This document shows positions 1 to 28,922 of a stretch of DNA of 64,000 nt, in pieces; within the stretch, counting starts at the first letter, position 1; the number at the start of each line of letters is the position of its first letter. The stretch comes from Cercospora beticola. Lineage: Eukaryota > Ascomycota > Dothideomycetes > Mycosphaerellales > Mycosphaerellaceae. The stretch spans positions 3,472,001 to 3,536,000 of the forward strand of contig NC_088939.1 of assembly GCF_033473495.1 (NCBI RefSeq), read 5' to 3'. Below the pieces are notes generated by a model. It saw nothing but the letters and a program-made list of their open reading frames with translations, did not search any database and was not told the origin of the DNA. The translations under genes were made by a program, and so were the position numbers.

Positions 1-3000
1 AAGCCGCTAATTTAATATTTCTAAACTATATACGACAACCTAATAACTATTAAGCCTAGACTGCTAATCTTACTCTAGCACGATACTAACGTAATAAACT
101 AGCTTATCCTTACTTACTAAGATAGGCCGGAGTATTAAGTAGTATTGCTAGGTAACTACGAGTTATTAGAGGCTCTAATTACCGCTATACGAACGTCTAT
201 TACTACCTAGTTAAATATTAATAAGGTATAATCGTCTAACTAGTTTATTACCGATAGACGATATAGAAGGAATACTAGCAACTCTCGTAATAACCGAAGA
301 TAATAGAATAGCTACTAGTAACGACAACTATAGAAGAAGTGCTTTGTCTATAATAAACTAGGTTATTAGTTAAGTAATTATATACGCTAAGAACGTAATA
401 AGGCACGAGAACGGTTCACTAAGGATAATCGAGTATACTACTAGTACCTCCTTAATTACGAAGGCGAAGGATTACCTAATAGCGACGACGACTCTAACTA
501 ATTAGATAGCTAATAATTCCTTATAGAGTTTAGTACTATTATACCGGAGATAGCGAAAATGACACTTTTAGCGCTATTAGACAATTCCGCCTATTATGCC
601 TTTACTCTATACGATCTATTTACTATATTCGCTACGGTTCTAATTAAGTAGATCTTTATAGCTAATCGCTATTCGAGCGCTATATTCTAAGGTATCTTAC
701 CTAATACCGGAGCCTCTAGCGTATTAACCGCCGGAATTAATTAGGTTAAGGCTCTTTAGCGATTAATGCCTAATATCTAGCTAAACTAGTCGATATAAGG
801 TACTTACTATATTAAATTCGGAGCTAGTAACGCCTCCTCCTTAGGATCTATTATCGTACTAATACTATTCGGAGATATCTAGTTCGAGGCTATTCTAACC
901 GATATACCGTTCCTCTAGTATATATAAGATATAGACAAGCTAGATATTATACTTAATAACCGGAAGAACCTACTAATCTAAGGCGACAATAAGGTTACTA
1001 TACCTATTGTTCGTAAATAGAGTTACTCTTAGCTATTACTCGACGAATATACCTACCTAGCTATATATAACCTCTCTAAGAGCGAGTTGAGAACGCTATA
1101 CCGCCGATTCGGCCACCTCTCTATTAATAAGCTAGCCGCCGTACTAGACCGAATTAGTACTAAATACGATAAGTATACCCTCTAGCGTATTACTAAGTAC
1201 TATAGGTTATGCCAATTCTATAGACAAGCACCTAGGCGATTTAAATTCACCCTCTATAACGATAATATTAACTTTAATACGGAGGTTATCGTTAATATTA
1301 TATACCTCGGACAGCCTAAACGACTAGTTCTATACGTCGTTAATACGGCTACTACTTTCTAAGCCGCACGATTCTTACCTAATATAACGGCTAAGACAGT
1401 CTAGAATGCCTTACGTACCTACTAGATTAACGTATATTAAGGGCTACCGGAACGTATTATCTACGACGCTAGTACTAACTTCCGTACGGACGAATTCTAG
1501 TAGTATATAGCGGCTATAGATATTACTACTAAAGAGGTACCTATAGAGGTATATAATAGTATTAGTAAGGTCGAACGATACTATATACTACTACGACGAG
1601 CGTTCGATATTATTAAATCGGAAACTAACCTTCCGAACGATACGGTATTGCAAATAGCTATTAAGGCTATTAATAATACTACTAGACCTCGAGGTTTAGT
1701 ACTAACCTTGCTAGTATTCGGTATATATCTACGACTACTATTAATAAGTATACTAACGCCGGATATTAAACAACGAGCCCTCGCTATCTATAAGGCTATA
1801 GCTAAACTTAAACGCCTTTAATCGGAACGTCTAATCCGTAATACTCTAAATACTCGCAATAGCTCTAATTTACTCGTAGTAAAGAAACTACTACTAGGGG
1901 ATAAGGTACTCGTTTAGCGTAAATTAGGTTAATAGACTAGCCCTTACCTACTAAACCGTATTAAGGACGAAGACTATACCGTAGAACTACCTAGTAGACT
2001 AACCCGATTTAGAATTACTTTAGTTAAGCTATACCTAAGTAATAATAACGAGATAGAGGTAGAAGCTAATAACTCCGAGTATAATTAACTAGAACCTGCT
2101 AATAACGATAGCGACTACGAACTAGAGCTAGAACCTCCGATAGTACCTCGGAAACGTAGAAGGCTAAAAGGATTAAAGAATAAGCTAAAACTAATACTAG
2201 CAGAAGCGACTACTATAGTTAATACTAAGGAATAGCGTACTATAGACGAATTAATTAAACTAAGAGCTACTAAGGTTATTATAGAACTAGGCCGTCTATT
2301 TAAGGCATTAACTAAGGCAGAGATTAAAGGGCTAATTAACCGAGTTATCGTGTTTGAACCTTATAACTAATAGAGGTACGGTAACTACCGACTGTTCAAA
2401 TCACGTATAGTCTATAAGGTTAAGAAGCGTAGTAACGGACAACCCTACGAGAAATTAAGGCTTATTATTTAAGAATATAACGACCGTAATAAGGAAACGA
2501 TTCTAATATAGTTACTAATAATCTAGCGAGTATTATAGCGAGTAATTATTAGCCTCGCTACGAGTCTAATTAAGCAAGGTTTTACGCTAGAATTACGCGA
2601 TATTAGCTAAGCGTATATATAGTTAACTACCGAACTAAACCGAGTCGTTCTAGCGTTACTACCTAAGGAACTAGAGTATAACTACTACGGCATAATTATA
2701 AGAGTTATCCTACCGCTCTATAGACTAGCGGAATTAGGTACCTATTAGTTTAATACGTATAGTAACTACTATAAGGACAAACTCTATATAGTAACTAGCT
2801 CGTTTAATCTATACTTACTAATTACTACCTCGGAATTACCTAGAACTAGAATCGTCGGAATACAAACCGATAACACGCTAATCCTCGCTAACTAAGAGTT
2901 CTAGCGTACGGAGGCTAAATACCTCGTATTTACTAGTAAGCCTAAGGAACGACTAATAGCCGATACGCCCCTAACTTTTAATAGATATACTATATCGCTA

Positions 3001-3840
3001 AGTACTACTAGAACTATTCGTATTATACTAAAAGGCTAAGGTAAACAACTAAGCCTTATCTACGATACCGATAGCTACGTAGTATAGCGTATACGAGGCG
3101 CCTACCTAGCGTCTATATACTAACTAGAGGCTATATTTGACCTCTTAGTAGTAGCTTAATCTAAGGTACTAACCTCTAACGATATTAAGGCCCTTAATAA
3201 GCGAATCTAATAGCAAATAAACAACCTTAACTATAGTTTAATATACTAACTACTAAACCTTAATTCGATAGTATTATATATCTTTATTAACGGCTTATTC
3301 GCAAATAATAAGGACTTCTTATTACAAATCGGTTACCTAATCGTTATTAGTACCGAATTAACCGCTACTAGCTTATTTACCGTAACTAGCAATATCGTCT
3401 ATTAGAGCTTAACTAAGAGTAAACGCGTAATACGCTTAGTCCTTATATTAGAGATATATACTATTAGCTACGGTATTAATATAGTATTTAGTATTAATAC
3501 TACCCTATCTATAATCTTATAGCGACTAGACAAACCGGCCTTACTATTAATCGTCTATACTAACTTACTCTCGCTTTACGAATATATAGTTAAGCTCGGT
3601 ACTACTAAGGAGAAACGCTTAATAATCGATATTATAGTACTAAGGCAGATATACGAGGCTAGAGAGGTTTGTAAGGTACGCTAGATTAACGGAACTACGA
3701 ACCCTGCCGATGCTATAACTAAGACAATACCGAACAAGGCCTTAATAACTCTTATTAATTAAGGAACTATAATATACGGTATCTAAGGATAGGTTAAAAG
3801 GTAAATCTACGCGGTAAGGCGATACGGATTTAGATACGAA
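1..3840 (+). mobile_element. RIP-degraded Ty1/copia retrotransposon, gag-pol region, 5' end outside the window
   Basis: Reading the plus strand with TAG/TAA taken as former Gln or Trp gives a continuous copia polyprotein. In order: a gag zinc knuckle beginning CFV (about 340-380), a protease motif NTGASS (703-720, ancestral D of DTG changed to N), the GAG-pre-integrase segment RRFGHLSINKLA (about 1,100), an integrase core (about 1,300-1,750), a reverse transcriptase (about 2,250-3,000, with an active-site-like GIQTDN in which D became N), and RNase H ending with PADAITK (3,702-3,722). Domain order integrase before reverse transcriptase is the Ty1/copia order. The 5' LTR and first part of gag lie outside the window. 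All lesions seen fit C-to-T at CpA on either strand, so the copy cannot encode a working protein. Confidence 0.92.
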
Positions 3841-3880
3841 CGGCTAGCGGCTAATTATAGGCTAGAGATATACTATTAAC

Positions 3881-4104
3881 TGTTAGAGGTATTGTTTTAT
3901 TGCGTTTTTAGGCGAGTTTATACGAGAAAGAGAGATTGCTAGTATCGGTTTAGCTATAGTAGCTACCTCGTATAAACCGGCTTAAGCTCTAACTACTAGA
4001 ATATAGATATTCCGTTCCGGTAGTAGTATATATAGCTAGCTCGTTCGCTACCTTCTCTTAAATTATAATATAAATCTTTATATACTACCTTTTATTACCT
4101 AACT
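3881..4104 (+). repeat. Probable 3' LTR of the copia element
   Basis: The segment begins TGTTAG, about 40 bp after the end of the RNase H frame, and runs to CCTAAC near 4,103. The two ends form a short inverted repeat (TGTTAG/CTAAC), as expected of LTR termini. No partner LTR is in the window, so the borders are inferred and the 3' edge may be off by a few bases. Confidence 0.5.
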
Positions 4105-5580
4105 AAATACCCTCTATAGAGGAGGCTACCTATAATATTATTCTTAAATAAAACGTCTAGCTCGGTAAATCTATTTCTATAATTAGTCTTATTTATACTT
4201 AACGATTATATTACTAGCTTATAGGCGTCCTTTAGGCTCTAGAAGTCGAAAATATCTATATAAAGTTAGTTAAAATATAGAAAAACTTTAATATTAGTAT
4301 CGATACTCTACTTATATCTCGATTAGATATAATAAATATAACTCTAACTAAAAGAAGTCTATACTTATTCTCTAGTTCTAGGCCGAAGAATTTAGCTATT
4401 AAGTTATAAGAATATTTATAATAATTTCTAAGATATTATATATATTTCTCGTAAGTACTATTATCTTATTACGAAGTAGAGTTAAAGACAATTCTACGAC
4501 GAAAGAATAGTATACTAGCCTAATCGAGATATTATATACTAAGATATAGATTATAAGTATAGATCTAACTCTCTAATTAAAGCTAAAGTAATTCTTCGAA
4601 GCGAGTTCTAAAAGAGTCTCTAGTATTAAGTAGACTATTATATCTACTTAACTCTAGATATAGAGTATATAATAGCTAAACTAATTAATTAGAAACTAAG
4701 AGAGAATAGTTCTAACGAATTCTATAGTAGTTTAAATTAGAGTTATAGAGAAGGTATTTAAAGAATCTAGCCTAGCCTATTTATAGAAGTATATCGAGAA
4801 GCCTAATTATATATCTACTATATAGGATTTAGATCGCCTATACTATATAATAGATTTCTATATAGTATAAGTTTATACCTCGAAAATATATACTATAACT
4901 AGAAGTAGCTTCTTTCTTCTATTTAATAGCTATAGTATATACTATTATACTAACTATCTAATTAATATCGAAGTTCGGATCTAATCTCGTTATTAGATAG
5001 AGTAGACTATATTTAGCTTCTACCTTTCTATTCTTTCGAACTAGCTACTAGAGAGATTCTAGAGCTAGAGCTATAATAAGTATTAATAGTATAAGCTAGA
5101 TCTACTAAAGAGTAAATAGTAACCTATATACTAAGCTACTCTACTTATCTACTATACTTTTAAGAATACTACTAGCGATAAATTATTCTATTATCTAGTA
5201 AAGATTTATATAGGTTATTAAGTAAGTATATAAAATAATAGAATAGACCTCGATAGCGTAAGAAGTAGTAAGCGTTTACTAGAGCGAATATAAGTATTAG
5301 TAGCTCGATTAATCTAGAAATATAAAGAGGTACTTATAAATACTCTCTATACTATACTATAAAGTACCTCGTCTATAGCTAGTATAAATAGATTCTATAT
5401 AAAGAATAGGATAAAAATAAAGCTAGTAAGTAGAACGAGCGCTAGTATAAGCGTCTTCCTATACCTAATCCGATCTATAATAAGCTCTATAAATATTAAG
5501 CTCTCTCTATAAAAAGTACTATTATTTAATCTAGCTTACTATAGTATAGACAATTAGTAAGACCCGTCTATTTAAAGGTT
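4105..5580. other. RIP-saturated DNA, origin not recognised
   Basis: The stretch is almost free of CpA/TpG and rich in TpA. I could not restore any recognisable protein frame on either strand. It is probably older repeat DNA next to the copia element. CA and TG dinucleotides reappear between 5,580 and 5,880, marking the edge of the next island. Confidence 0.5.
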
Positions 5581-5880
5581 ACTAAAGCGTCTAGCAAATG
5601 CCGGCTGTCCGTATAAGCCGCTAATAAGTACTAGGTCGAATCCTTCTATTATTAAATATATAGAGATAGCTGCTAACTACGCTACGGCTTTCGGGTAGAG
5701 CCTAAGCCCTTGCTAAAGAGTTATTGCTTTCTCTACCTTCGTAGCAGCACTCGCATCGAGCGCGGCATTAACCTCGATAAATGCAATAGACGCTTTATAC
5801 AGACCTTTGTCGCTACAAGTACGCACGTCTGACTAGACCGGCTTCGGCATACTAAAATCAGCAGCGTAAGGATTTTGATA

Positions 5881-7190
5881 CTGAGAAGTGAGATGTCGTC
5901 TTAAACGAAGTGGCTGATCTCAGGCAAGCTTGCAGGCTCTTGCACGCCACAAGGCTATACAGGTAGTTATGAGTCTACGCCCGTGGCCAGAGCACGGAAG
6001 AACTCGAGTTTGTGATCGCACGGCATCGAGACCTAGTCTAGGTGTGCATTGCGCCTCGAAATCGCGCAAAAAGTATGAAACCCTCGCAACTGCAGTAACA
6101 TGCACAAATTGCTGGAGACCATGGTTTTCTCCTCCAGGATTTCCCCGGATTTGTGTAGACTAGACCGGAGACCCATGTGTCGAAAAAGGTTCATCAAGTC
6201 GGGTTTCCTCATCATCCACGCCCGTCAAGGCACTCGGAGGAACTGACCTCTTTCGACACTTCCGCACGAACATGACCAGAAAGGTCCTAGTCAAGTTGTG
6301 AGTACTGTCAACGTCTGTCGGCGTGGTTGTGCATTGTAACTTGCTGCGGCGAAACTTCATCCCTGGTCCCGATCTCGAACCGAACAAATGCACACGGCGG
6401 CACTCTCTCTGCGCCGGGTAGTTCACACGAGCGCCCGAGATCGACGGCATCCCTACTCGGATCTGCATATCGACCATTTCCCCGAGGATATGCTGCGCCG
6501 AGGAGGGGTCAAGTGGGATACGATACTCCGTCGCTTGTAGCCAGCATTCCCCGCTCCAAGGCCTGACTGCTGCTGGGCTACGATATCCCAGCTTCCCCAC
6601 GTCGACTGTGAACAAACACCCTCTGATCCCCGCCTACACGAGGTGAGTCGCGGAGCAGCGCTAGCGAAGCTCTGCATTTGAACTGTATCGCGTGAAACCC
6701 GAAGTAGTTCAAGACAAGGTCTACTTGCACCCCACTTCTTCAATCTGCAACTGCAGTTCGTCTGACTTAGGTAATTACGTGCCAGTGCGATGATGGATGA
6801 TTTTCAAAAGGTTACGCCGTAATACCGGCAAAATTATCTGTCCACCCAATGGATGTCGATGTCGGCAGCCGAGGCTTTGCAGAATCCTGGCCGTCATGGC
6901 AGTGTCTTCGTGCGACTCTTTCCGGGGCTCCCGCGTGCACACTCTTGAAGCGCGGACGACGTTTCGAGCATGCGCAAGGACGCTTGAAGACGATGGAATC
7001 CCGCCGTCGCCCTCGGAACACGAAAAATGGCCGGAGAAACGAGTGGTGGTCCTACCGACAGCCCTGTACGTGGTCGACCTCCACCGGTCTGGGACTGCCT
7101 CCGCGCTCGCTTCGGACACCACGCATGTACAGTGACCTCTCAAAAGTCTGTCCTCTGACGTCAGAAATTCGCGTGTTTTTGAACGCGTGT
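5881..7190. other. Non-RIP island without a recognisable gene
   Basis: Base composition is ordinary and CA/TG dinucleotides are common, unlike both flanks. Open frames up to about 150 codons occur on the minus strand (for example 6,160-6,615) and about 120 codons on both strands near 6,775-7,199. They overlap on opposite strands, and I see no motif or domain in them. The sequence may be a gene remnant or intergenic DNA. Confidence 0.4.
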
Positions 7191-7329
7191 TTTCTATAGG
7201 ATTAATTCAAACCACAACATAAACACGCCACGCACGCCTCTAAGGCCTATCTCTTATAATTACGTTTATAATTATGAGTTCAGTCTATAGTATAGAGCTT
7301 AGATATATAGTATAGCGCGTAGTAGCCTA

Positions 7330-9330
7330 GTAATCGCTAAGATTATAGAGCTAGAAAACGCGCTTCTAAACTCTATACGTAAGGTTATTTAGAACGTCTA
7401 TAATACTAGTACTATACTCTTAAAACTACGTATAGGACGACTAAAGGCTCTTAATAGATATAGCTAGCGAAAGCTTATAAATCTAGTTAGAAGGAACTCT
7501 AAAATTATATATACTAGCCTTAAACGCGAGCTTAGCCTTACTATATCTACCTCTACTCTCCGACGCGTTCTCGACGTATATAATATCCGTTCTTAGAAGA
7601 TAGTACGTAGGCCTATATTATTAGAGGTTTATACTACTCTTAGACTATCGTTCGCTAAAAAATATATCTATCTAATAGTAGTAGACTAGCTAAAGTTCGT
7701 ATTTTTAGACGAGTGTTCTATAGAGAGAGGCAGCGGCAAGAAACGCGACTAGGTATTCTATACTCTATACTAGAAATAGAATTAAGAGATAATCTAAATA
7801 TACTCTAAAGATAGAGGTATCTCTATTATAGTTTAGGCTATAATTAGGAGTAGCCTACGAAGTCCTATTATATACCTCTACGTAGTCGTAGGTAGAAATA
7901 GATAGCTTCGGCTATACTAGTAAAGTATAGAGTAGCTAGATACTTATAGAGATAGAAAGAAAGCGATAAAAAGTCTAGAATTTCGACCTAGAGAGATTAG
8001 AGAGCTCCTAAGAATACGAAGACGACGCTAGCGCGGTATAACTACTATAAGATTCTAATACTCGACTATAGGATAGCCCTTCTAGGTAGTAAATACTACT
8101 ATAGATCTAGAGGCTAGAGTAGTAACCTAGGCTTTAAATAGGCTAAAGAGAAGGAACTAAATATACCTAAAAGAAGGCTTTAATAAGAAAGAGTAAGGAT
8201 AGTAGAAATAGAAGAAAGGAATAGTAGTACCTCTATAGATACTAGGACAATTAGCTACTAGGAGCCTTTTATCTAAAATAGAAGACTCTAAAGTAGACTA
8301 GTCCTTCTACTCTAGAGCTCTCTAGAAACCTTAAGTCTAAAGGCAGAGTATCTAATATAAGCTATCTAACTCTATACTATACTTAGAGCTATCTATAAAG
8401 ACACCTACTACTATTCTAGATATTCTATAAAAACTAGAATTTCTCTAGATATAGGTTATATAACTAGGTACTAAGGAAGGTTAAAATCTAAGTAGGATTT
8501 ATATAGAAAGATACCTACTCTAGGAACTAGTAAGAAAGAGTTAGATATAGGATTAATATAGATACTAGTATAGAGATAAAGACTATATATATAGGCTAGA
8601 GTCCCTAAGCTAGTAGGCAAGAGGATCGGGCTCCTAAGTACTTAATAATATAAGAAATAACTAAGGAAAACTATATTATAAAGGATCTAATAAACTATTA
8701 AGATAATATAAATTATCCTAAGGAGAACTAGAAACTATAGAAGCAGTAGGCTATATAGAGCTTACTATAAAATATAAAGACACGAGGAGGTTTTTCTACT
8801 AGAGTACTAGTACGAGAGCTTTTCTACCTACGAAAAATATAGGGCGTACTACTTACTCTAGTTAAAAGAGATAGACTAGCGTATAAGAGTTATCTATCTA
8901 TCTATAATTAGGAGTAATTCTAATAGGTTAGAGTTAGTTATTATAAAGAGAGATCTAGAGTTATAGAAGAGTAGCTATTTAGCTATATCCTATCTCTAAA
9001 CTCTAGAAGAAGGCCTTCTACTTTAAATTAAAGAAAGTTAGGTATTTATATAAGATAATATACTAATCTATACTATAAAAAAGACTAAGAACTAGTTCCT
9101 AAGAATAGGTATTAAGATACTAAAGGACTAGCCTCTATATAGCTCTAACCTTAATCTAATTAAGTACTTTTAGTAGCTTCTTAAGAATATAGTCTATAAG
9201 GTATTACCTTATTTTAACGATATAACTAATCCTAATAGATAGCGTAAGGAACTAGAACGTATATTGCTACTAGTATAGAATTAAATACTATTATACCGGA
9301 TCTATATAGTACTAGAGTTAATACTACGAA
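7330..9330 (+). mobile_element. RIP-degraded Tc1/mariner transposon, interrupted by a second element
   Basis: The plus strand restores a Tc1-type transposase in two pieces. The first (about 7,330-7,852) has a helix-turn-helix-like part and the first catalytic region FLDECSIERGSGKKRD (D and E visible). The second (8,917 to about 9,330) holds a segment like RDLE..K, then DNILIYTIKKTK (the DNAPIHT region) and LYSSNLNLIKYF (the SPDLNPIEHLW region). Between them sits a 1,049-bp insertion flanked by a 15-bp direct repeat. Stops are of the RIP type (TAG/TAA for Gln or Trp). Terminal inverted repeats were not identified with confidence; RIP-saturated flanks reach about 7,200 and 9,460. Confidence 0.85.
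7853..8901 (+). mobile_element. Short non-LTR-type element, copy 1, inserted in the Tc1 transposon
   Basis: The insertion is bounded by perfect 15-bp direct repeats CTATAATTAGGAGTA at 7,838-7,852 and 8,902-8,916. The same sequence in reverse orientation occupies 40,718-41,949, beginning with the same bases (GCCTACGAAGTCC). The 3' end here is a short (TATC)n tail. A common 5' end, a microsatellite tail and 14-15-bp target duplications together point to target-primed (LINE-type) integration. The interior, about 8,080-8,770, is almost free of CpG, unlike the transposase around it. No reverse transcriptase frame is visible, so it is likely non-autonomous. Confidence 0.72.
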
Positions 9331-9621: not shown

Positions 9622-10693
9622 CTATTCTACCAGATGATATCCTGCTGCCCCAAAAACAGCATCGGAAGGAATTTCTACTCGATCCCATCTCACAAGTGGA
9701 TCTGCTCGATCCTCCTCTGTAAGTTTGTGCTTGTTCACCCAAGCAAGTAATGAATCATAGTCGTGACACTTGCGTTTTGTAGCAAAGTCGAATTCTCCGG
9801 GTCCCCAGGCGGTCGGTATTACTCGAGCATCCGCTGTACACATCACACGCTCGCGCAGAATGTCGATGCAGTGATCTACACGAGTTATTCGTTCTCTTGT
9901 TCATCATCCCGTAAGCTGAACAGTGTTGAACTTACTTATGTGAGACCTGTGCTCTTCTTCCGTTTCATTCAGATGTGCACCCCGAGCCTTGTAGTAATCA
10001 TGATTATAGTATAACGATTTTCGAAGTTGATTCTGGAAGATGTCAAGGCTCGAAAGCTACTAATGGTGATGGGGCAGGAAAGGAATTTACCACACAGTGA
10101 AGATCATGAGTCGCCCAGAATTGGACTGCATATCCTTCCCGATGGTCTCCCCACTGCGGGGGCCTAACGTGAAAATAATGCTGTGGATCTAGCCCAAAGA
10201 TGTGCCCAAATTTAAGAGGAAGAAGCGTTGTGCTTTTGCCTGCGCCGATTTCGTCCCAGGCATTGTCAACATCTGGACCTGGACGGGCAGTGAAGCGACT
10301 TCTATTGTTGAACGGATCGAACGTGGAGAAGGCGCGTGTCTTTAAAGACCTGTCTACGCTCTTGTATACTTCTTCGACTATGTCGTTTTAGCTTCCATTG
10401 TTTTAGACAAGTCTTGATCCAGGCTGGGGGTACGCACTACCATCCGGGTCTTCGGAGAAAGCGCGGTAAGCTTCCAACCTGCCATACGAATATGCTATGA
10501 GCATCGAAAACAGATTGAGCGTCAGGAGTGCAAGGAATATCCAGCAGCTGGACCAGCAGTAGATCGATCGTCTTCCGCGGAGCCTCGTCTTGCTTTCCAG
10601 TGGGAGAAGGGCCTCGATCTCTTGTATCATATTGTTCGGCTTCAGTTCTTGAGTCCTGGTAACATATCTGGGGATTGAGGATTCTCGAGACAT
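9622..10693 (-). CDS. UstYa/DUF3328-family oxidase-like protein, four exons
   Basis: UstYa-family proteins act in fungal RiPP and mycotoxin pathways, in oxidative cyclisation of peptide cores. Reading on the minus strand, exon 1 (10,693-10,438) gives about 45 residues, then one membrane segment near residues 45-68 (around WIFLALLTLNLF). Introns are 10,437-10,378 (GTGCGT..TAG), 10,090-10,033 (GTAAAT..CAG) and 9,935-9,876 (GTAAGT..TAG). The first family motif, HDLHC, is residues 176-180. The second, HINHC (212-216), is assembled across the third intron. The C-terminal part has the expected Cys pattern (HCIDILRERVMC). The model totals 297 residues, normal for the family. An in-frame Met at 10,762 would add 23 residues. 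It is divergent from the repeat precursor at 11,448, which suggests one locus. The first intron is the least certain: it hides two in-frame TAA codons that could instead be mutations. Confidence 0.85.
9876..9935 (-). other. Intron splitting the second HxxHC motif
   Basis: The minus strand has a consensus GTAAGT donor (9,935-9,930) and a TAG acceptor (9,877-9,876), 60 nt apart. Without splicing the frame shows RVDHC before CID; with splicing it reads HINHC. Recovery of the family motif is strong support for this intron. Confidence 0.85.
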
Positions 10694-11447
10694 CGTAAAG
10701 CCGAGACGAAAAGGACAAAACCCACTGAGTATACCTTCTTGACAGACTATCGAAGCCGTCACCCAGATGGCAATATCATCTGTCTGTTCCAGAGAGAAAA
10801 CCTAGACTTAGTATGCAAGTTCTTAGTAACAATAGTAGTCAGGTGCCATAGTCCCGATAGAAGTACAGGCACTCCTGTTGGTTCCCCTCGCGTTCTCCGT
10901 CTGCTGGGATTCTGGCTCAATCGTCAAATTTTACGGTACATCGATTTCTCGGCGAAAATACCCTAGACGAGGAGAGGAGTCTGATGCATCCGGGGGTCTC
11001 TCAGACATTTCCTCCCTCGTTCCGAGCTCTAGCCAGAGGGTGGCGTGCGACTGACAGAACCCCGCATACTAGACGGATAAAACCTTGTGAACAAGTCTAA
11101 GCATTCCTGGTGTTTCTCCGTCCATTCTGCCTTTGCTTACATTCTTATTCGCCTGTTCAGTCTCCTAGTATATGTGTCTCTCGGTGAAACTTACTCAGTA
11201 AGACGAGGAGGAAAGTCTCAGTCCAGATTGATTGATGAACAAGGTTCCACCGACTTTGCTCAGCACTGGTCTGACCCTTGTACAGAGTTCCCGCTGGCAC
11301 GAGTCGTTTATGCCACTGCCCGAAGAGCATAAATATATAGCAAATGTCACTATCGTTTCGTTCGCCAACGCAGTCCGACCTTCTCGCCTAGACAACGCCA
11401 ACATTCTCAACGACTACACAGACTACCTGTCAAGAAAGACATTTACA
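10694..11447. promoter_or_regulatory. Divergent intergenic region between the UstYa-like gene and the repeat precursor
   Basis: About 750 bp of ordinary composition separate the two divergent starts and probably hold both promoters. Small open frames (for example 11,087-11,332) overlap no recognisable product. I identified no specific operator. Confidence 0.5.
11328..11340 (+). promoter_or_regulatory. TATA-like box upstream of the repeat precursor
   Basis: CATAAATATATAG lies about 110 bp before the precursor ATG at 11,448, a reasonable distance for a fungal TATA element plus 5' leader. It stands in otherwise mixed-composition DNA. Confidence 0.4.
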
Positions 11448-12268
11448 ATGAAGGTCGCTGTCTTCATCCTCAGCGCATTTGCCGTCAGCGTTGCTGCCAG
11501 AGCACTTCCGCTAGGCAAGCATCACGGAACAATGTAATCGCCTTCCAGACGTCACTAATCCTTGCCCTAGCCGACAACGAGCTAGCCAAGCGGACGATCT
11601 ACGGCGCTGGCAGTGCCTTCCCGTTCGGCTACAAGCGAGCTGCGGACGGTGAAGATGTCGAGAAGCGGACGATCTACGGCGCTGGCAGTGCCTTCCCGTT
11701 CGGCTACAAGCGAGCTGCGGACGGTGAAGATGTCGAGAAGCGGACGATCTACGGCGCTAGCAGTGCCTTCCCGTTCGGCTACAAGCGAGCTGCGGACGGT
11801 GAAGATGTCGAGAAGCGGACGATCTACGGCGCTGGTAGTGCCTTCCCGTTCGGCTACAAGCGAGCTGCGGACGGTGAAGATGTCGAGAAGCGGACGATCT
11901 ACGGCGCTGGCAGTGCCTTCCCGTTCGGCTATAAGCGAGCTGCGGACGGTGAAGATGTCGAGAAGCGGACGATCTACGGCGCTGGTAGTGCCTTCCCGTT
12001 CGGCTACAAGCGAGCTGCGGACGGTGAAGATGTCGAGAAGCGGACGATCTACGGCGCTGGCAGTGCCTTCCCGTTCGGCTATAAGCGAGCTGCGGACGGT
12101 AAAGATGTCGAGAAGCGGACGATCTACGGCGCTGGCAGTGCCTTCCCGTTCGGCTATAAGCGAGCTGCGGACGGTGAAGATGTCGAGAAGCGGACGATCT
12201 ACAGCGCTGGCACTGCCTTCCCGTTCGACCACAAGCGAGACGCATATAATGACAAGACTACAGAGTAA
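11448..12268 (+). CDS. Kex2-processed repeat precursor, candidate dikaritin-type RiPP precursor
   Basis: Exon 1 starts at ATG 11,448 (A at -3) with a hydrophobic signal peptide beginning MKVAVFILSAFAVSVAARA. A 56-nt intron (11,515-11,570) leads into exon 2, which stays open to TAA at 12,266-12,268; the model is 254 residues. Exon 2 is nine 75-bp repeats. Each encodes a 13-residue core, Lys-Arg, the acidic spacer AADGEDVE, and Lys-Arg. Seven cores are TIYGAGSAFPFGY; core 3 has A-S for A-G; core 9 is TIYSAGTAFPFDH. One spacer (between cores 7 and 8) has K for E. Signal peptide plus dibasic-flanked repeats is the known layout of UstA-like precursors and of Kex2-processed repeat proteins; the divergent UstYa-like gene favours the RiPP reading. 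The alternative is a secreted repeat peptide or pheromone-like precursor without modification. Confidence 0.85.
11515..11570 (+). other. Proposed GC-AG intron of the repeat precursor
   Basis: GCAAGC at 11,515 and CTAG ending at 11,570 give a 56-nt intron that restores the repeat frame. A good branch site CACTAATCC sits 10-18 nt before the acceptor. No GT donor is in phase with that acceptor. An alternative in-phase intron is 11,484-11,548 (GTCAGC..CCAG), which would change the end of the signal peptide but lacks a clear branch site. Confidence 0.55.
11588..12238 (+). repeat. Nine-copy 75-bp coding tandem repeat
   Basis: Cores begin at 11,594 and then every 75 bp to 12,194. Copies differ at few positions: synonymous GGC/GGT and TAC/TAT changes, one Gly-to-Ser in copy 3, one Glu-to-Lys in the spacer after copy 7, and several changes in the last copy. 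Copies 1 to 8 are nearly identical at DNA level, which suggests recent unequal exchange or gene conversion. Confidence 0.97.
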
Positions 12269-12657: not shown

Positions 12658-13098
12658 ATGCTGACGCGAGCTAGTTTAGAGACCTTGCTGGACATTAAGA
12701 TTGAGTCGCTAATAGCTACGTTGTTCCTACGTAAGGATTTCCTTGTCCGCATTTGCCGGGCCGCTTCGCACGCCTTAGAACGCTATACTACAGGTTCCGC
12801 AGCTCTCTAGGAACGCTCATTTCACTCGAACATCGGTAGCCTAGAGTACGATTCGCATGATTTGATAGCGCGTGTTGACTCCGCAGATAGTGTTCCTGCT
12901 GCCTATTAGGAAGTTATGCTTTTTATTAGCTATATCCTGGCTATAATTTGTGATCGTTGGACTTCGACAGCCTTGCGATGCGGCCCTCTTATCGGCAAAT
13001 TTCACGCCGTCTTAGAAAGTTGCGGTACTAGTTTAATAATATTCTATTGCTCTAAGGAACCGAATATTCCGATCGCTAGCCTTGTCTACTACTTATAA
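12658..13098 (+). pseudogene. Unknown reading frame broken by two TAG codons
   Basis: From ATG 12,658 one frame runs 146 codons to TAA at 13,096-13,098, with only two interruptions: TAG at 12,808-12,810 and TAG at 12,907-12,909. Both fit RIP of a Trp or Gln codon. The encoded text looks protein-like (LETLLDIKIESLIATLFLRK, later a hydrophobic stretch and CDRWTSTALRCG). I do not recognise a family. CA/TG dinucleotides thin out towards 13,100, where the next RIP block begins, so mutation has probably spread from that block. It could equally be the surviving end of a longer gene. Confidence 0.5.
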
Positions 13099-15690
13099 TA
13101 ACCTATAACTACGATTTTCGAAGAGCTATAGAACGGGAGCTAGAGAATAGCGCTCTCTATCGTAGGCGAAGCTATAGTATATAGGTATTAATAAGATGTA
13201 TTCTACTATAGTTAAAAGTGTTCTAGAGAGTAATCTTTCTTACTTTAGGATAGGAGATCTCCGCCTATAGGTGTTTTATATAACGCTTAGAGCTTTTTTA
13301 ATAGGCTAATCGTATAATCGACGAGCAAGTTAAGCTAGTTACTATATATAATCTCTTCGTATACGCGATATAGCTAGCTTAATACGAATAATATATAGGC
13401 TACTAGGTTATCTAGCTAAGCTTCGATCCCGCCTTTTAGCTATATTTAAAGAGTAAGACTCTCTACGATACCTATAATACTCCCTATCGTACTTTACTTT
13501 ACTATAGGCTATAACTACTTAGCTCCCGTTATAATAAAAATAGCAGATAATAAGCTTATTATTTTCGAACCTAGCGCTCGTTATCTTATAACTACTCGAC
13601 TATAGAATACTCTATCGTAAGCTTTATTAGTCGGAGGAATAGTAGCCTTTATATATAACTATTACTTACCTAGAAAATAACGTAGGCCGATTCGTATAGT
13701 ATATAAGATTAATAGAGCGTATAGAGTAGCGCGCTAGTTAGAAGTAATATCTATCTCTCGTTTCGTCCTATTATAGTTTAATTCGATTTAATACGAGCGT
13801 AGCTAAAGGGAGTTACTCGGCGAGAGTACTATTAGCGGCGAGTACGACTATACTTTCTAAGATTTAATTATATATAGTAGCTTATTTATAGCGATAGCGA
13901 TAGTATACTTAGTATTAGGTACGAGTATTATTATATTAGCTTTATTTACGGAGTAGTATTTAGTAGCCTAGATAAAATCTAGAGTAGTAAATCTACTCCT
14001 AGGCTAAGCGAGTTATTCTAAGTCTCTATAGATATATAAATAAAGATCTATATAGTATATCTAAGTATAAACTCTACTAGTAGGCTATAAAACTTTCTAT
14101 AGAATAGTAAGTAAGATATAGGGAAGTAGTCGTAGCTTTAATACCTATAATCGGCCTATTTAAACTAAATCCTAGTAATTCGAGAACTATAGGCTAGAAG
14201 ATATAAAGTACTCCGAGGGTAATAATAGTATAAATAATCCCGACTATAAGAGAGTATTCTTTTATAAATTACTTTACGAGCTCTAGAATTTTAGCTACCT
14301 TATAAACTACCCGATCTATAGCGACTTCTATAGTAGAAGCTATATCTTTCCCGGACCTTAGTAAGTCTTCTATTACTAAGAGTAGCGCTATTATAGTCTA
14401 TATATCCTACTATCCCGAGTTGCGTATAATTTCCTTAAGTACCTATATAGCTTTATCTAGTACTACTATAGCTATTAAAAGTACGCTAAGTATCTCGCTA
14501 ATAGTATTAGTATAGTCTTTCGTTAGTTCCTCTCTAAAGTAACTATAGTTCTTCTCGGCGTAGATAGTAGTTATTATATATCCTATTCTACTTTTATAGC
14601 GCCTATATATATATTCTATAATAGATATAAATATCTTTATATAAATATAGTTATTTCTAGAATAAAATTTAGAAGGATATACGAGTAGAAAGTATCTAGT
14701 ATATATTATATTCGGAGCCTATTCTAACTCTAATACTCGGATATATACTTATAACTTATATAAAGTAACTTATATAAAGTAAAGCTAAGCTATAGCTCTC
14801 TCTAGCTAACTAGTTAATATCGCGCCTAGAATATAGATATAGAGCGAAAGTAGGCGTTACGACTCGAGCTATTATAGCTTAGAGGCTTAGTAGCTAATCC
14901 TTTCCTTATACTTATATAGACTAGAGTTATATAAAGGAGAATAGATTAAGCGAAGCTAAACGAATATAGAGGATCTCTTATAGTCTTATATAGCTCGTAG
15001 CTCTTAGGTTTAATATTATAGATATAGAAGTAGCGAGCTCGACTTTAAGCTAGAATTTTATTACTACGACTAAGAATTCTAAGGAAATAGTAGTAATTAC
15101 TAGTACTTAGAACGTACTATAACGTAGCTCTATCGTTATTCGGGTAGATCGACGCTAGTAACGTAAGTTATATTAGATATAATCGACTCGCTTAAGTCCG
15201 CTAATAACTCTATACTATTAGCTTTCTATTTAATATATTCTTCGTCTATTTTTAATAATAAAGGACTAGCGCTCTAATAGATAAGTAGGTATATATAGTA
15301 GTATAAGCTATTTTCTATATCGAGCTACTATTTAAGTAATTTAGGTATTATATATATAAGGCAAGTCTAGTAATAATTAAACTCGTACTTACGTAGCTAA
15401 AATTTTACGAGATTACTATACTAATACGTATATTAGTTATTACGTACTATCTCGTAATTCGAACGTTTTATATAGTCTATTAGACGAGCGCCGGTATTAT
15501 CGCTAGTTCGTACTACGTCCTAGTATACTACTTAGGCCTTATTCGTATTTAGACTAGTATATAGTTAGCCTTAATAAGGCGCTTTCCGTGCTCGTACTAA
15601 GTGGTTATAAATAGTAGTTTGTCCGTAGAATAAGGCGTTTCTTATATTCGTATAATCCTCGCGATCTACTAAGCTTGTTTATTTACGTAT
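13099..15690. other. RIP-saturated DNA, element not recognised
   Basis: CpA/TpG are nearly absent and CpG is present. Some minus-strand frames between about 14,800 and 15,150 stay open apart from TAG/TAA, so coding ancestry is likely, but I recognise no family. Confidence 0.45.
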
Positions 15691-16073
15691 TACAAGTCGC
15701 TCTATTGCCTCCAGAAAATCTTCGCAGGACCGCCAAGCCATGCCTCTTCTACCTTGCCGTGCATCGCCTCAATGTCGAGAGATTACCTTCTATTCTAAGC
15801 TATTAAATCCCTATCACATCCCTAGCTATCACCACTGCGATATTGCTGAGCCTGCGGGATCTGGATTCATTCGACGCCTTTGGAGGCATATCGCTCTCAC
15901 ACTCAGAGCAAACGATAGTATTTGACACTTGCTAGTTATACGCGCCATTCCGCAGCGTCACGATAGGCAGCCATTCATCATCCTCTCCCGTAGCAAACTC
16001 GGTATTTAGTCTATCTGGACTTCGAAATCGTGAGACCACGAATGTTTCAACGCCAAGAGACATTTCCTCCGAA
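15691..16073. other. Start of a non-RIP island, no gene recognised
   Basis: CA/TG return from about 15,690. Short frames (15,740-15,925 plus, 15,932-16,171 minus) show no motifs. Confidence 0.35.
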
Positions 16074-16906: not shown

Positions 16907-17885
16907 CTACAGTAAGAGCAAGGACGGTTTAGCTGATCTATCTGACCTCTTATAGAGTAGAAGTTGCAAAGAACTATCTTCTGCCCTACTTAACACGTAC
17001 GGTCTAGTAGACACAAGCACCACAGTAGCCGCACTCTGAGTCGCACGCTGCAAAGTCTTCTGCCTCTCGTTCAAACTCGTCATGATCGAGGAACTCATGC
17101 TTTCCAACAAGTCCGCGAGGTCGACGGTGTGATGGACTGGCACAGCCGCTTTCTCCTTGATTGCTTTACCGCCCTGGAATTTGTGCAACATCCCGACCTT
17201 CTTCTGTGCAGGTGTCGGCTGCCAGTACCGCCACCCTACTGGCGCCTCCGCCATGTGCTTTCCCTTGCTGTCGAAAGCTTCGGCCTGAGACTGCTTGATG
17301 CGTCTCTCCGTCTCCTCCACGATCTTGTTCCACCAGGCATCACAGAGCTTTGGCCGGTACACATTCCAGAGATTTGGCATGTGGATCACGTCCTGCGTGC
17401 TATAATCCAAGATTTCCTTGGCCAGTGGTCTCCGATCGAACACAGCATAGTCGCCTCCGTGCTCTGGGGCGAAAAGCCTACAACCCTTCTTCTTGACTTT
17501 GTCCTATTTCATTTTCTTAGCGCTACTAAGAGTCGAATCTCTCTCGATACATTTTGCAAGTCTATTAACATGTTTTCGGTTAGAGATCCTTGTAGTAAGC
17601 TGCATTAACTAGAGATCGCAGATTCCTTTAACACGGACGCCGTACAAAGCGTAAAGCGCGTCCGAATTATGCTAGATATCGAAAAAGACCTTAGTAATGT
17701 CTATAGACTCGAGGATCTGCTATAGCGTTCGTCTATTAGTAGCTTTTATCGTAAAAACCTCGCTATTTAGCGTAGTAACGTCGACTAAATATACTATATC
17801 TCGCGAGTATATAAGTATTATAACTAGAGAGATTATACTATAATAGGATAGATTTTTTCTCTTAAGGTTAATATATAATTTTAGT
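16907..17885 (-). pseudogene. 3'-5' exonuclease domain protein, 5' half destroyed by RIP
   Basis: The minus strand encodes a DnaQ/RNase D-like fungal exonuclease. The 3' half (17,443-16,907) is intact: FDRRPLAKEILDYSTQDV, then a Trp-rich tail (HMAEAPVGWRYW). Going upstream the frame continues through GCRLFAPEHGGDYAV, a TAG (former Trp) near 17,503, KCIERDSTLSSAKK, and KVFFDIRHNSDALYALYGVR-like text to 17,640. Beyond that it is RIP-saturated but readable: VYLVDVTTL and, at 17,878-17,850, LYINLKRKNL. The family has LYxDxEG there, so the catalytic Asp and Glu now read Asn (17,869-17,867) and Lys (17,863-17,861), each by a G-to-A change in TpG context. The upper boundary is approximate. Confidence 0.8.
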
Positions 17886-19835
17886 AGGTAGCTCTTATAA
17901 TCTAGAAGACTATCGAGAAAAGTAACGAGAGCGCTATAAGTATTAATTAAGATAGCTATTATAGCTACTATATCGATAAAAGCTCTCGAAAAGAACGAAA
18001 TATAAATATATAATCTATAGTAGCTAAGCTCTACTAGCTATACTTTAACCTAGACTAGAGCTATAGTAGCTATAAGACGAGACTAATAGCTACTACTATA
18101 CTACGACTTCTAGAACTTTCTACTTATTAACTCTAGGTACTTAAAGTAGAGTACTAGCGACTCTACGAATAATAGCTCTAGACTCTAATAAAATATAAAG
18201 TTTATATTAGATCCGTATATAGAGATAGCTATAAAGTATCGATACTAGTCGTCTTAGTCTAGCCTATAACTTTCTATAAATAAAGGTTCTTAGGTTTTAT
18301 AAGTTAATACTACTCTTTCTTCTTATTAAGTAATAATTAAACTTTTCGTTAATTAATAGAGAGGAGATCGCTATTCGTAGTAGTACTATATATATATACT
18401 CTATAGGTAGCTAGATATATAAGAAATAATATATAGTAATCGTAGATACTTATAATATTATAAACTTTATCGATATAATCTATATTTTCGAAGTAATTAT
18501 TCTCTTCTTCGACGTATCTATTAGTAAGCTTATTAGTTATATAAGTAGTATAGATAGTAGTACTACTAATAATAGAGATAGTAAGTAAAGTTAATATTAA
18601 TATATTAGTAGTAGTTATAATAGTAGTAATAGTCTATTCTATTTTAGACTTACTTTTTAGTTATTATTCCTCTATCGCGATCGTAACTATACTTCTATAG
18701 GCCTAGACTAGGCTAGAGGAATTCTAGATAGCCTACCGATACTATTATAGCTATATATAGACGCTCTAAGTACTATTATACTAGTAAACTCGAAAAGGAT
18801 ACTTCTCTCTATAGAGAGTTTATTACTCGTCTATAAGCGCGAGAGGAGAGACGTAGATATACTAGTTCTACTTAAAGTTATACTAGACCTAGTAACCTTA
18901 GTAATAGGTAGGTATAGTAAGGCTAACGTAACTACTAATATTCTTATTACTATTAAATATAACGCGAGTCGCTTATACTACTAATTAAAGAGAGACTAGC
19001 GGCGCGCTCTAGTTAAGTACATACTATAGAAGCTATAAGAAAGTATAGAATATTAGCGTTAAATAGCTCTACGTAGTATTAGTATAGTCGAGAATACTTT
19101 ATATAGATATATAGCTACTAGGTTAAAAGTAATATAAGATAAAGTAGTATACTAGTTCGATTCTTAGCTTAGAGTACTAAAGAAGAGCAAAAAGAGAGTT
19201 CGAGTAGAAAATCTTAAGTTAGTTATATAAACTATCTAGAGTTATATCGAAATAAAATAAGTACTAGTAGATAGTAGACTATTATATCTAGTTTATAGAA
19301 GAAAGTAAAATACTAAGTCGATCTCCGATCTATAGTAATATTAGCTCTATTCTTCTAAATAAGTATATAATCGGATCTTTTATATCTAATTACTAACCGG
19401 ATATCTTTATATATATATATAAGAAGCGTACTATAGTAATATATAATAATTATATCTAAGTACGACCTAGTCTCGTAGATACTATTAGTCTACTAATCGT
19501 TTAGTACTTCTAATAGAATTATTATAAACTAACCTCTTTAGAGCTATATCTATAGTAAGCCTATCTAACTCTATAGCTATATAATAATAATCGCGTTTCT
19601 ACTCTATCTCTTTACTTATAATTAGAGTTATAAGATCTACGAAGCCGCGAAATATATAGAGAGCGTAGCGTAAATAGAACTATCTATATCTATAGAGGAA
19701 TAAGTCTATAGTTTCGAGGTAGCTAGAACTCTAAATAGATAGCTACTCTATTCGCGCCGCCTAAGGCTCTTATAGTCGCTAATAGCTATAGCTATACGTT
19801 TAAGTCGTAAGCAGTACACCTAATATTAGCTACAT
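17886..19835. other. RIP-saturated DNA, element not recognised
   Basis: It lies between the exonuclease remnant and the helicase island. CpA/TpG are nearly absent. I found no frame that could be matched to a family on either strand. The right edge is abrupt, at about 19,830-19,860. Confidence 0.45.
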
Positions 19836-20263
19836 AATCGCCTAGGCGGGTTTAGGGGAGAGCTAATTAGCGCATCGCTAGTAATGTGAACACGGTAGTT
19901 CCCCCTCATCTAACTATAACAGGATGATTCATGCCTGGACGGATATGCACACCACGATCCTGTGGCTCGGCTCGCTTCCATGATAGTCTCATGGCAGAGC
20001 TGAGCAGGGCTGTCGGCCCGTGCCTTGTCGCTCATTGGGTCGACTTGATGCTCTATCGCCGCACAACCACCTTAGCGGCTATGCATGTGTTGTATACACC
20101 TGAAACGAAATTCCTGTGCCACCTGAGGGAGAGGAGGTACACGCTCGAGCTTGCCGGTTTGTTACAGCAAGTCCCACCTCGACTCTGCCTTGTGGTCAAT
20201 GTCGGAAATCCCGCTACTTCCTCACCCTCCTCGTCTCTCCATCTCGAGCCAACCACTGCTGAC
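19836..20263 (+). promoter_or_regulatory. Upstream region of the NFX1-type helicase gene
   Basis: Ordinary composition resumes here. The reading frame of the first exon is open back to an upstream ATG at 19,931, so a longer N-terminus is possible, but that part has no recognisable motif and is more likely 5' leader and promoter. Confidence 0.4.
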
Positions 20264-26200: not shown

Positions 26201-26355
26201 ACGCTAGGAATCTGCTCGAGGAAGCAACGATACTATGCGAGCACGGATTCCACGATGCAGAGACTCTGCTAGAAGCAGTCAACCAGTCCTTGAAGCTTCT
26301 GCGAAAGGAATGGTATGCGAAGGTCACAGACCAGGAGCTTGAAGCGATCAAGTAA
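20264..26355 (+). CDS. NFX1/ZNFX1-type zinc finger helicase, six exons, C-terminus truncated
   Basis: Exons are 20,264-20,384, 20,446-20,643, 20,715-22,434, 22,512-24,831, 24,882-25,233 and 25,343-26,355. Introns are 61, 71, 77, 50 and 109 nt, all GT-AG; the lengths keep one frame, giving 1,907 residues. A CCCH finger (C-x7-C-x5-C-x3-H) forms across intron 1. The UPF1-like superfamily 1 helicase has Walker A GPPGTGKS (just before intron 3), CYTNHALDQ after it, VVICEEAGEV, GDHQQLRP, VDNFQGEEAK and RINVLLSRAQHG. Cys-rich NFX1-type repeats follow (CGHRCQAKCH, CGHTCPGTCGFC, CGHQCPGLC and others, about 24,240-25,090). Related proteins act in RNA-based silencing and antiviral responses in animals; the fungal role is not settled. 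The frame stops at TAA 26,353-26,355, before the family's last finger. Confidence 0.92.
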
Positions 26356-28243: not shown

Positions 28244-28846
28244 CTACGAAACAACGCTGTAATACGCGTTCTCGGTCCCGTGGCTATGATATGAGCAACC
28301 AGCCAGCTGTGATCGAGTCCGATCAGCCCTAGTTACGAAGTCTCCGCGATCTTGCAGAAGTTCTTTGGCGAGGTCTCTAAAGAAATCGGTGTTGGTCGCT
28401 CCATCCAACCACTCTGCACGTCCGTGGAAGAAATGCATGTCGACTAGCAGCTTTTGAAGAGGCGAACTCTCCGGAGTGCCTCTGTATGCCCTATCGATAG
28501 TGGCAGACTCCGGATACCATCGCGTGTCTTGCTCGTCAGGCGTGTCGACTGCATGGATGAGAGAGTCGATAATAGCGTCCTTGAAATCATGATGCTGAAG
28601 AGCCTCGCCCCGTACGAAGGCCTCGACGAGGAGGTCGATTTCCTCTCGGTTGCCTTCAGTGTCGCTCATATCTCGGACGCTAAATATGCGACCCCTGTAC
28701 AGCCACTGGACGTAGAGTGCAAATGCAGCTGGATCGTCGTTTGGAAGCGGAACTAGTCCTTCCTGGCCTTCATTCCAGCAGTCTTTTGCGGCCGCGGAGA
28801 AATAAGGCGACTTCTGACACAGCAAATCTTTGTGCACAGTCCGCTT
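28244..28846 (-). CDS. BTB/POZ domain protein, 5' exon not resolved
   Basis: The minus strand reads KRTVHKDLLCQKSPYFSAAA, the start of a typical fungal BTB/POZ domain, followed by LPNDDPAAFALYVQWLYRGR and a C-terminal part ending with CSYHSHGTEN. BTB proteins of this fungal family are protein-interaction modules, sometimes Cul3 adaptors. There is no ATG before VHKD. A plausible 76-nt intron (28,922-28,847: GTAAGT donor, CTATTAAC branch, AAG acceptor) would put exon 1 beyond 28,923, inside RIP-saturated DNA. The first exon is therefore probably mutated, and the gene may be dead although the visible part is open. Confidence 0.7.
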   Translation of the reverse strand, partial: KRTVHKDLLCQKSPYFSAAAKDCWNEGQEGLVPLPNDDPAAFALYVQWLYRGRIFSVRDMSDTEGNREEIDLLVEAFVRGEALQHHDFKDAIIDSLIHAVDTPDEQDTRWYPESATIDRAYRGTPESSPLQKLLVDMHFFHGRAEWLDGATNTDFFRDLAKELLQDRGDFVTRADRTRSQLAGCSYHSHGTENAYYSVVS

Positions 28847-28922
28847 CTTATATCGTTAATAGGATGGCCGATGTCTATAATTTCCCCTGCAGATGAGCGC
28901 TACGAACTGGCTCTGGACTTAC

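What the first reader, a model, noticed from the sequence alone, without database searches (positions are those of the whole stretch)
9622..12268. Divergent UstYa-like gene and Kex2-repeat precursor: a candidate new dikaritin-type RiPP locus
Seen: a signal-peptide precursor with nine Lys-Arg-bounded 13-residue cores lies head-to-head with a membrane-anchored DUF3328 protein that has both HxxHC motifs. Known: precursor plus UstYa homologue is the minimal signature of ustiloxin, asperipin, phomopsin and victorin type pathways. Inference: the pair makes a modified, perhaps cyclic, peptide from TIYGAGSAFPFGY, which has four aromatic residues for ether or C-C crosslinking. I do not recognise this core. 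The precursor is split by an intron and has no ATG in its repeat frame, so automated gene calls would probably miss it.
Basis: partly seen in the sequence, partly recalled or inferred. Interest (0 to 1): 0.93.

Follow-up and report, generated by a model that had tools for sequence, protein, structure and literature searches.

The report
Fungal gene pair for modified peptide
A fungus related to leaf-spot fungi carries a gene for a secreted protein made of nine near-identical peptide repeats, back to back with a gene of the family that cross-links such peptides in other fungi; it looks like a new example of a known kind of natural-product pathway whose product is not yet known.

Summary
On the minus strand, 10693-9622 encodes a four-exon, 297-residue UstYa (DUF3328) protein with one strong hydrophobic span and both HxxHC motifs; two homologues from Mycosphaerellaceae support its splice junctions. 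The start codons lie 754 bp apart, head to head, in a small island inside DNA heavily marked by RIP (repeat-induced point mutation). Of 22 UstYa loci scanned in this genome, two others have a repeat precursor, also head to head. Best reading: a minimal dikaritin-like RiPP locus whose peptide repeat was not found in what I could search. That is a new member of a known kind: Umemura 2020 counted 1,758 precursors with a DUF3328 neighbour. Product, modification and expression are untested, and the 13-residue stretch may be a Kex2 fragment, not the mature core. Extra result: all seven differences among repeat units 1-8 are CpA-to-TpA changes, the mark of RIP, which suggests that RIP edits the peptide array itself.

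The parts
9622..10693 (-). UstYa (DUF3328) family gene, 297 aa; exons 10693-10438, 10377-10091, 10032-9936, 9875-9622; introns 10437-10378, 10090-10033, 9935-9876
   Evidence: PF11807 129.6 bits, E 2.1e-37; splice enumeration, several in-frame choices; the chosen junctions agree with homologues P0001 and P0002
10091..10377 (-). exon 2; holds the first HxxHC motif (HDLHC, residues 176-180) near its end
9622..9875 (-). exon 4; second HxxHC motif (HINHC, residues 212-216) formed across the exon 3/4 junction
   Evidence: PF11807 match on this exon
10694..11447 (.). 754 bp between the two start codons, presumed shared promoter region
   Evidence: promoter role inferred
11448..11514 (+). precursor exon 1: hydrophobic signal-peptide-like leader
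   Evidence: hydropathy
11515..11570 (+). 56-bp GC-AG intron (donor GCAAGC, CTAAT branch-like site, acceptor CTAG), phase 1; most likely of several in-frame readings
   Evidence: same place and, with the donors chosen there, same phase as the leader introns of two other repeat precursors in this genome; inferred, no RNA data
11571..12268 (+). precursor exon 2: end of leader, nine Lys-Arg-bounded units, short C-terminal tail, stop
11588..12262 (+). tandem array, nine 75-bp units: Lys-Arg, 13-residue stretch, Lys-Arg, 8-residue spacer (half acidic residues); the spacer of unit 9 is replaced by the C-terminal tail
   Evidence: TRF (11588-12239, 8.7 copies, 97%); unit table

Best explanation
A two-gene RiPP locus that works like a minimal dikaritin pathway. 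The precursor enters the secretory route by its signal peptide (inferred from hydropathy). Kex2 protease cuts after each Lys-Arg (inferred from the sites). A carboxypeptidase trims the basic residues, giving up to nine copies of a 13-residue peptide plus spacers (inferred). The membrane-anchored UstYa-family protein, facing the same lumen, oxidises this peptide, most likely forming a cross-link that uses one or more of its four aromatic residues (inferred from the UstYa/UstYb and AprY precedents). The product is secreted (inferred). Shown here: the gene structures as sequence models, the family assignment, the repeat punctuation, the divergent arrangement, and two similar pairs in the same genome.
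For: UstYa 129.6 bits with both HxxHC motifs. Nine Lys-Arg-bounded units behind a hydrophobic leader. 754 bp between the start codons. 3 of 22 UstYa loci scanned carry a Kex2-repeat array (34 loci by my hand grouping), and in all three it points away from the UstYa match; with the donors chosen, all three leader introns are phase 1. Homologues 67% and 63% identical over 71% and 62% of the query in Pseudocercospora fuligena and Cercospora zeae-maydis (both Mycosphaerellaceae) suggest a maintained enzyme (inference). Both genes are open as spliced although the flanks are saturated with RIP. In print, DUF3328 genes are concentrated next to Kex2-repeat precursors, and almost all pheromone precursors lack them (abstract and section 7 of PMC7329392).
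Against: No expression, peptide or mutant data. No transporter, reductase, methyltransferase, tyrosinase, peptidase or regulator among 29 window ORFs scanned with Pfam; 27 of these are from the list of 94 ORFs of at least 70 aa with GC over 0.42, so the scan is partial. No P450 among the 92 of 183 candidates scored lies in the window; the nearest listed on its contig starts about 244 kb beyond the window's end. No relative of the precursor found, so conservation of the peptide is untested. The preferred precursor intron has a rare GC donor site (rarity recalled). Crude RIP indices flag the precursor (1.10 and 0.92) and the space between the genes (1.08 and 0.91) as RIP-like, though not the UstYa gene. 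The predicted structure of the homologue's domain was too poor to test the metal site (mean pLDDT 51).
Confidence: 0.72

Rival explanations
1. The precursor gives an unmodified linear secreted peptide (signal, pheromone-like or antimicrobial), and the UstYa gene is a neighbour that acts on something else.
For: 6,120 of 7,878 Kex2-repeat precursors have no DUF3328 neighbour, and the yeast mating factors among them are linear (PMC7329392).
Against: Adjacency at 754 bp in a genome with 34 UstYa loci (hand grouping) in 36 Mb; two further head-to-head pairs in the same genome; almost all pheromone precursors lack a DUF3328 neighbour.
Confidence: 0.15
2. A decaying locus: the repeat array and its leader are out of frame because of an old indel, no intron restores the frame in the cell, and RIP is eroding the array.
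For: No GT-AG intron with good sites joins leader and array; RIP-type changes in the array; precursor RIP-like by crude indices and surroundings heavily RIPped; diverged ninth unit.
Against: The GC donor lies in a good local match (TAG|GCAAGC), with a branch-like site and CTAG acceptor, at the same place and phase as the leader introns chosen for two other precursors. Array and UstYa gene as spliced have no stop in frame. RIP-type changes sit mostly at silent sites (5 of 16 silent against 2 of 40 replacement chances, post hoc p 0.016), though strand bias could also do this.
Confidence: 0.1
3. A non-coding tandem repeat that happens to be open, next to a UstYa gene.
For: The array is open in several frames on both strands.
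Against: Leader, Lys-Arg at both ends of every 13-residue stretch, period divisible by three, and the pattern shared with two other precursor genes.
Confidence: 0.03

Closest known systems
Kex2-processed repeat proteins (KEPs) accompanied by DUF3328 genes (Umemura 2020, PMC7329392)
   Same: Leader, at least 3 repeats of at least 8 aa between Kex2 sites, DUF3328 gene next to it
Asperipin-2a pathway (AprA/AprY), as described in passages of PMC6514808
   Same: One precursor and a single UstYa homologue; core with several aromatic residues
   Different: Asperipin has a hexapeptide core and also a transporter and a reductase gene; neither was seen among the 29 ORFs scanned here, and the Kex2 piece here is 13 residues
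Ustiloxin and phomopsin pathways (passages of PMC6514808, section 7 of PMC7329392)
   Same: Repeat precursor with Lys-Arg sites and nearby acidic residues, 13-14-residue Kex2 pieces (ustiloxin), UstYa-type proteins
   Different: They have two and five DUF3328 proteins, a tyrosinase and further tailoring genes; none of these extras was seen among the 29 ORFs scanned here
Epichloecyclin precursor GigA (passages of PMC9233826 and PMC6514808)
   Same: Secreted Kex2-repeat precursor; product cyclised through tyrosine
   Different: GigA has four repeats and gives cyclic nonapeptides according to the reviews; no sequence comparison made here

Membership tests
Kex2-repeat precursor with DUF3328 neighbour (descriptive class) | ER signal peptide | tested here: met
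   Hydropathy only (12-residue window 2.5); no signal-peptide predictor was on hand
Kex2-repeat precursor with DUF3328 neighbour (descriptive class) | At least 3 tandem repeats of at least 8 aa between Kex2 sites, none over 100 aa (PMC7329392 methods) | tested here: met
   Nine units, all 13-residue stretches Lys-Arg bounded
Kex2-repeat precursor with DUF3328 neighbour (descriptive class) | DUF3328/UstYa gene among the nearest genes | tested here: met
   Adjacent, 754 bp between start codons, PF11807 129.6 bits
Dikaritin (RiPP made from such a precursor and cyclised by a UstYa homologue) | Cyclised or cross-linked product made by the UstYa homologue | not testable with these tools
   Needs LC-MS and gene removal
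UstYa protein family | PF11807 domain over its curated cut-off | tested here: met
   129.6 against 25 bits, profile positions 4-220 of 220
UstYa protein family | Two HxxHC motifs (recalled as the family's likely metal ligands) | tested here: met
   HDLHC and HINHC; the second also in P0001 and P0002, the first (as HDVHC) in P0002 only, since the P0001 gene model lacks that stretch
Ustiloxin/phomopsin subgroup | Tyrosinase, S41 peptidase, zinc-finger regulator nearby (passage of PMC6514808) | tested here: not met
   None among 29 window ORFs scanned with Pfam (partial scan); not filed in this subgroup
Asperipin subgroup | Transporter and reductase genes in the cluster | tested here: not met
   None among the same 29 ORFs (partial scan); not filed in this subgroup
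Mating-pheromone precursor | Similarity to known pheromone precursors | tested here: inconclusive
   No homologue of any kind among 159 candidates; DUF3328 neighbour is unusual for pheromones

The most novel reading that the evidence does not exclude
RIP, the fungal genome-defence process that mutates repeated DNA, acts on the tandem repeats of a RiPP precursor gene and so generates new peptide variants, while selection removes most replacement changes. All 7 of 7 differences among units 1-8 (4 of 4 variable columns) are CpA-to-TpA or TpG-to-TpA, although only 7 of 47 C/G sites per unit are in that context. The diverged ninth unit, left out of this count, has the unmutated base at all four variable columns, and the changes fall mainly on silent sites. 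Two changes alter the protein: one in the 13-residue stretch, one in the spacer. Against it: the one other array measured the same way shows 0 of 2 such differences.
Probability: 0.35. Interest if true: 0.6.

Novelty: new member of a known kind. Interest (0 to 1): 0.42.

Why it matters
Very few fungal dikaritins have a known product (five in the 2022 review PMC10512285, passages), against well over a thousand precursors with a DUF3328 neighbour (PMC7329392). This locus looks small and clean: one precursor, one candidate oxidase, and a nine-copy peptide with four aromatic residues. That makes it a tidy case for asking what a single UstYa enzyme does alone. It also shows how such genes can be missed: the array has no start codon in its own frame and probably needs a GC-AG intron. 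The RIP scar in the array raises a testable question: how do repeat-coded peptides persist, and perhaps diversify, in genomes that mutate repeats?

Tried and rejected
Structure prediction for the homologue domain P0002, with six aligned sequences, gave mean pLDDT 51; it was not used and no fold search was made. Search of solved structures with P0002: 0 matches. Homologue search with the precursor: none of 159 candidates passed. Search of the paper library for fragments of the repeat: 0 papers. P450 search: nothing in the window, but only 92 of 183 candidates were scored. GT-AG introns for the precursor: donor 11534 has no in-frame acceptor before 11613, which would cut into the first unit. Six other GT-AG combinations (donors 11484 and 11490) keep the frame, at least 12 residues of exon 1 and the first unit. 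I ranked them below the GC-AG intron because of poor donors, phase 0, and no branch-like site that I saw before their nearest acceptor (11548); they are not excluded. RIP as a general feature of such arrays was measured in only one other array: in L032, 0 of 2 differences among units 1-4 are of RIP type. L031 was only listed by eye, because its units differ in length. Species: not identified. No UstYa tree was built, because the widest search listed only 7 homologues.

Full report
WHERE. The window is G000:C5:3472001-3536000 in a fungal genome of 36.07 Mb and 10 contigs. Much of it is AT-rich. In 1-kb bins the flanks of the locus have TA/AT ratios of 1.69 to 2.02 and (CA+TG)/(AC+GT) ratios of 0.01 to 0.30 (bins 7001-9000 and 13001-15000), the mark of strong repeat-induced point mutation (RIP; thresholds recalled). 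The UstYa gene shows none (0.65 and 1.25). The precursor (1.10 and 0.92) and the space between the genes (1.08 and 0.91) are mildly RIP-like by the same crude thresholds.

THE UstYa GENE. Read from 10693 to 9622 on the minus strand. PF11807 matched two stretches in the genome search (50.8 and 31.5 bits). With three introns removed the protein has 297 residues and scores 129.6 bits over profile positions 4-220 of 220. Several splice choices keep the frame. The chosen one is supported by homologues: the Pseudocercospora fuligena protein P0001 (67% identical over 71% of the query) continues with the same residues after intron 1, and the Cercospora zeae-maydis protein P0002 (63% over 62%) agrees at introns 2 and 3. 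Both species are Mycosphaerellaceae. P0001 as annotated lacks the stretch with the first motif, and P0002 is marked partial, so support for the first motif comes from P0002 alone. Both HxxHC motifs are present, and the strongest hydrophobic stretch (49-67) would anchor the protein. A wider profile search listed 7 proteins: these two, two unnamed proteins from source collections (52% over 38% and 46% over 50% of the query), and named ones from Bipolaris victoriae (37%), Aspergillus floccosus (28%) and Penicillium angulare (29%) (only the 7,999 candidates sharing most words were scored).

THE PRECURSOR. Nine units of 75 bp. Each unit reads: Lys-Arg, 13 residues, Lys-Arg, eight spacer residues, four of them acidic. 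Units 1, 2, 4, 5, 6, 7 and 8 have the same 13 residues; unit 3 has one replacement; unit 9 has four, and its spacer is replaced by the C-terminal tail. The leader starts at ATG 11448, in a different frame from the array. Combinations of GT or GC donor and AG acceptor that keep the frame were listed. The best is a GC-AG intron, 11515-11570 (56 bp), with a good donor context, a CTAAT branch-like site and a CTAG acceptor. GC-AG introns are a rare class (recalled). Six GT-AG readings keep at least 12 residues of exon 1 and the whole first unit, with donors GTCAGC or GTTGCT. Some of them would still leave a hydrophobic leader, so the leader sequence is not certain; the array is the same in all. Support for the GC-AG reading: two other repeat precursors in the same genome (L031, L032) also have an intron just behind the signal peptide, and with the donors chosen by eye for their GT consensus all three first exons end in phase 1. 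For L031 only one donor was tried, for L032 other donors also keep the frame, and neither acceptor is settled.

CONTEXT IN THE GENOME. The precursor occurs once. UstYa matches (63) group by hand into 34 loci. I scanned 22 of them (the window, 20 loci of 9.9 kb, one of 6.8 kb) for Lys/Arg-punctuated repeats: 3 of 22 have one. In all three pairs the UstYa match and the precursor point away from each other (754 bp between start codons here; about 2.1 kb between UstYa match and precursor start in the others; I did not check whether a gene lies between). Among 29 window ORFs scanned with Pfam (27 of the 94 ORFs of at least 70 aa and GC over 0.42, plus two shorter ones), the matches over the curated cut-off were AAA_12 and AAA_11 on one helicase-like ORF (22474-25113). 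Matches below cut-off were AAA-type and ZNFX1 (20702-22435), BTB (28247-28855) and a few others. No tailoring enzyme or transporter was seen. Exon-sized ORFs can hide genes and the scan was partial, so this is not proof of absence.

THE RIP SCAR. Unit 9, which differs from the consensus in 12 codons, was left out. Among units 1-8 there are seven single-base differences from the consensus, in four columns. All are C-to-T before A or G-to-A after T. Seven of 47 C/G sites per unit have this context, so the chance that four changed C/G columns all fall there is 2.0e-4. Unit 9 has the unmutated base at all four columns. Five of the seven fall on silent sites (16 chances) and two on replacement sites (40 chances), Fisher p = 0.016. 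Limits: both tests were made after seeing the pattern; units copy one another, so events are not independent; all silent sites are on the coding strand and all replacement sites on the other, so strand bias cannot be told from selection; and the one other array measured this way shows 0 of 2 RIP-type differences. A paper search combining RIP with Kex2, RiPP, DUF3328 and tandem repeats listed 15 papers (listing only); one held both the RIP phrase and Kex2, by its title a general text on trees and their fungi, which I did not read.

WHAT IS KNOWN. I read sections 5, 6 (part 1 of 2), 7 and 13 of PMC7329392, its abstract and two passages: 7,878 such precursors in 1,345 of 1,461 strains, 1,758 with a DUF3328 gene among the 15 closest genes, most often as next neighbour. 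I read passages of PMC10512285, PMC6514808 and PMC9233826. In PMC10512285 dikaritins are RiPPs from such precursors cyclised by UstYa homologues. In PMC6514808 asperipin-2a has one such protein, which is essential, and ustiloxin's precursor is thought to be cut first into 13- to 14-residue pieces. The present locus fits this kind. It is not placed in the ustiloxin/phomopsin or asperipin subgroup, because their companion genes were looked for, in part of the ORFs, and not found.

VERDICT. Observation confirmed; interpretation reasonable but unproved; a new member of a known kind. The repeat is new to the collections that I could search, but published lists of repeat types (supplements) were not open to me, so novelty of the peptide type is not established.

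Noticed in passing
window 11588-12187: All 7 of 7 differences among repeat units 1-8 are RIP-type (CpA to TpA), five of them silent.
   Followed up: partly
L032 (G000:C4:40200-50100), 7700-8240 +: Second Kex2-repeat precursor, five 84-bp units with a Tyr- and Phe-containing 28-residue repeat, head to head with UstYa matches.
   Followed up: partly
L031 (G000:C4:16200-26100), 1908-2457 -: Third Kex2-repeat precursor; eight units of two lengths sharing a Pro-Pro-Arg-Glu-Ala-Gln-Tyr ending, with many silent differences between units by eye, head to head with a UstYa match about 2.1 kb away.
   Followed up: partly
window 1-6000, 13000-16000, 18000-20000, 29000-64000: Very strong RIP signature or low GC (mostly under 0.40) around small intact gene islands; RIP indices computed only to 30 kb.
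   Followed up: partly
window 20702-26352: Large helicase-like gene (AAA_11/AAA_12, ZNFX1 match below cut-off) in the neighbouring intact island.
   Followed up: no
window 16910-17503: Open frame of 198 aa without a Pfam match over cut-off; to my eye it recalls a 3'-5' exonuclease (recalled, not tested).
   Followed up: no
G000, 34 loci by hand grouping: This genome holds many UstYa-family genes (63 exon matches); 19 of 22 loci scanned show no repeat precursor nearby, so their substrates are unknown.
   Followed up: partly
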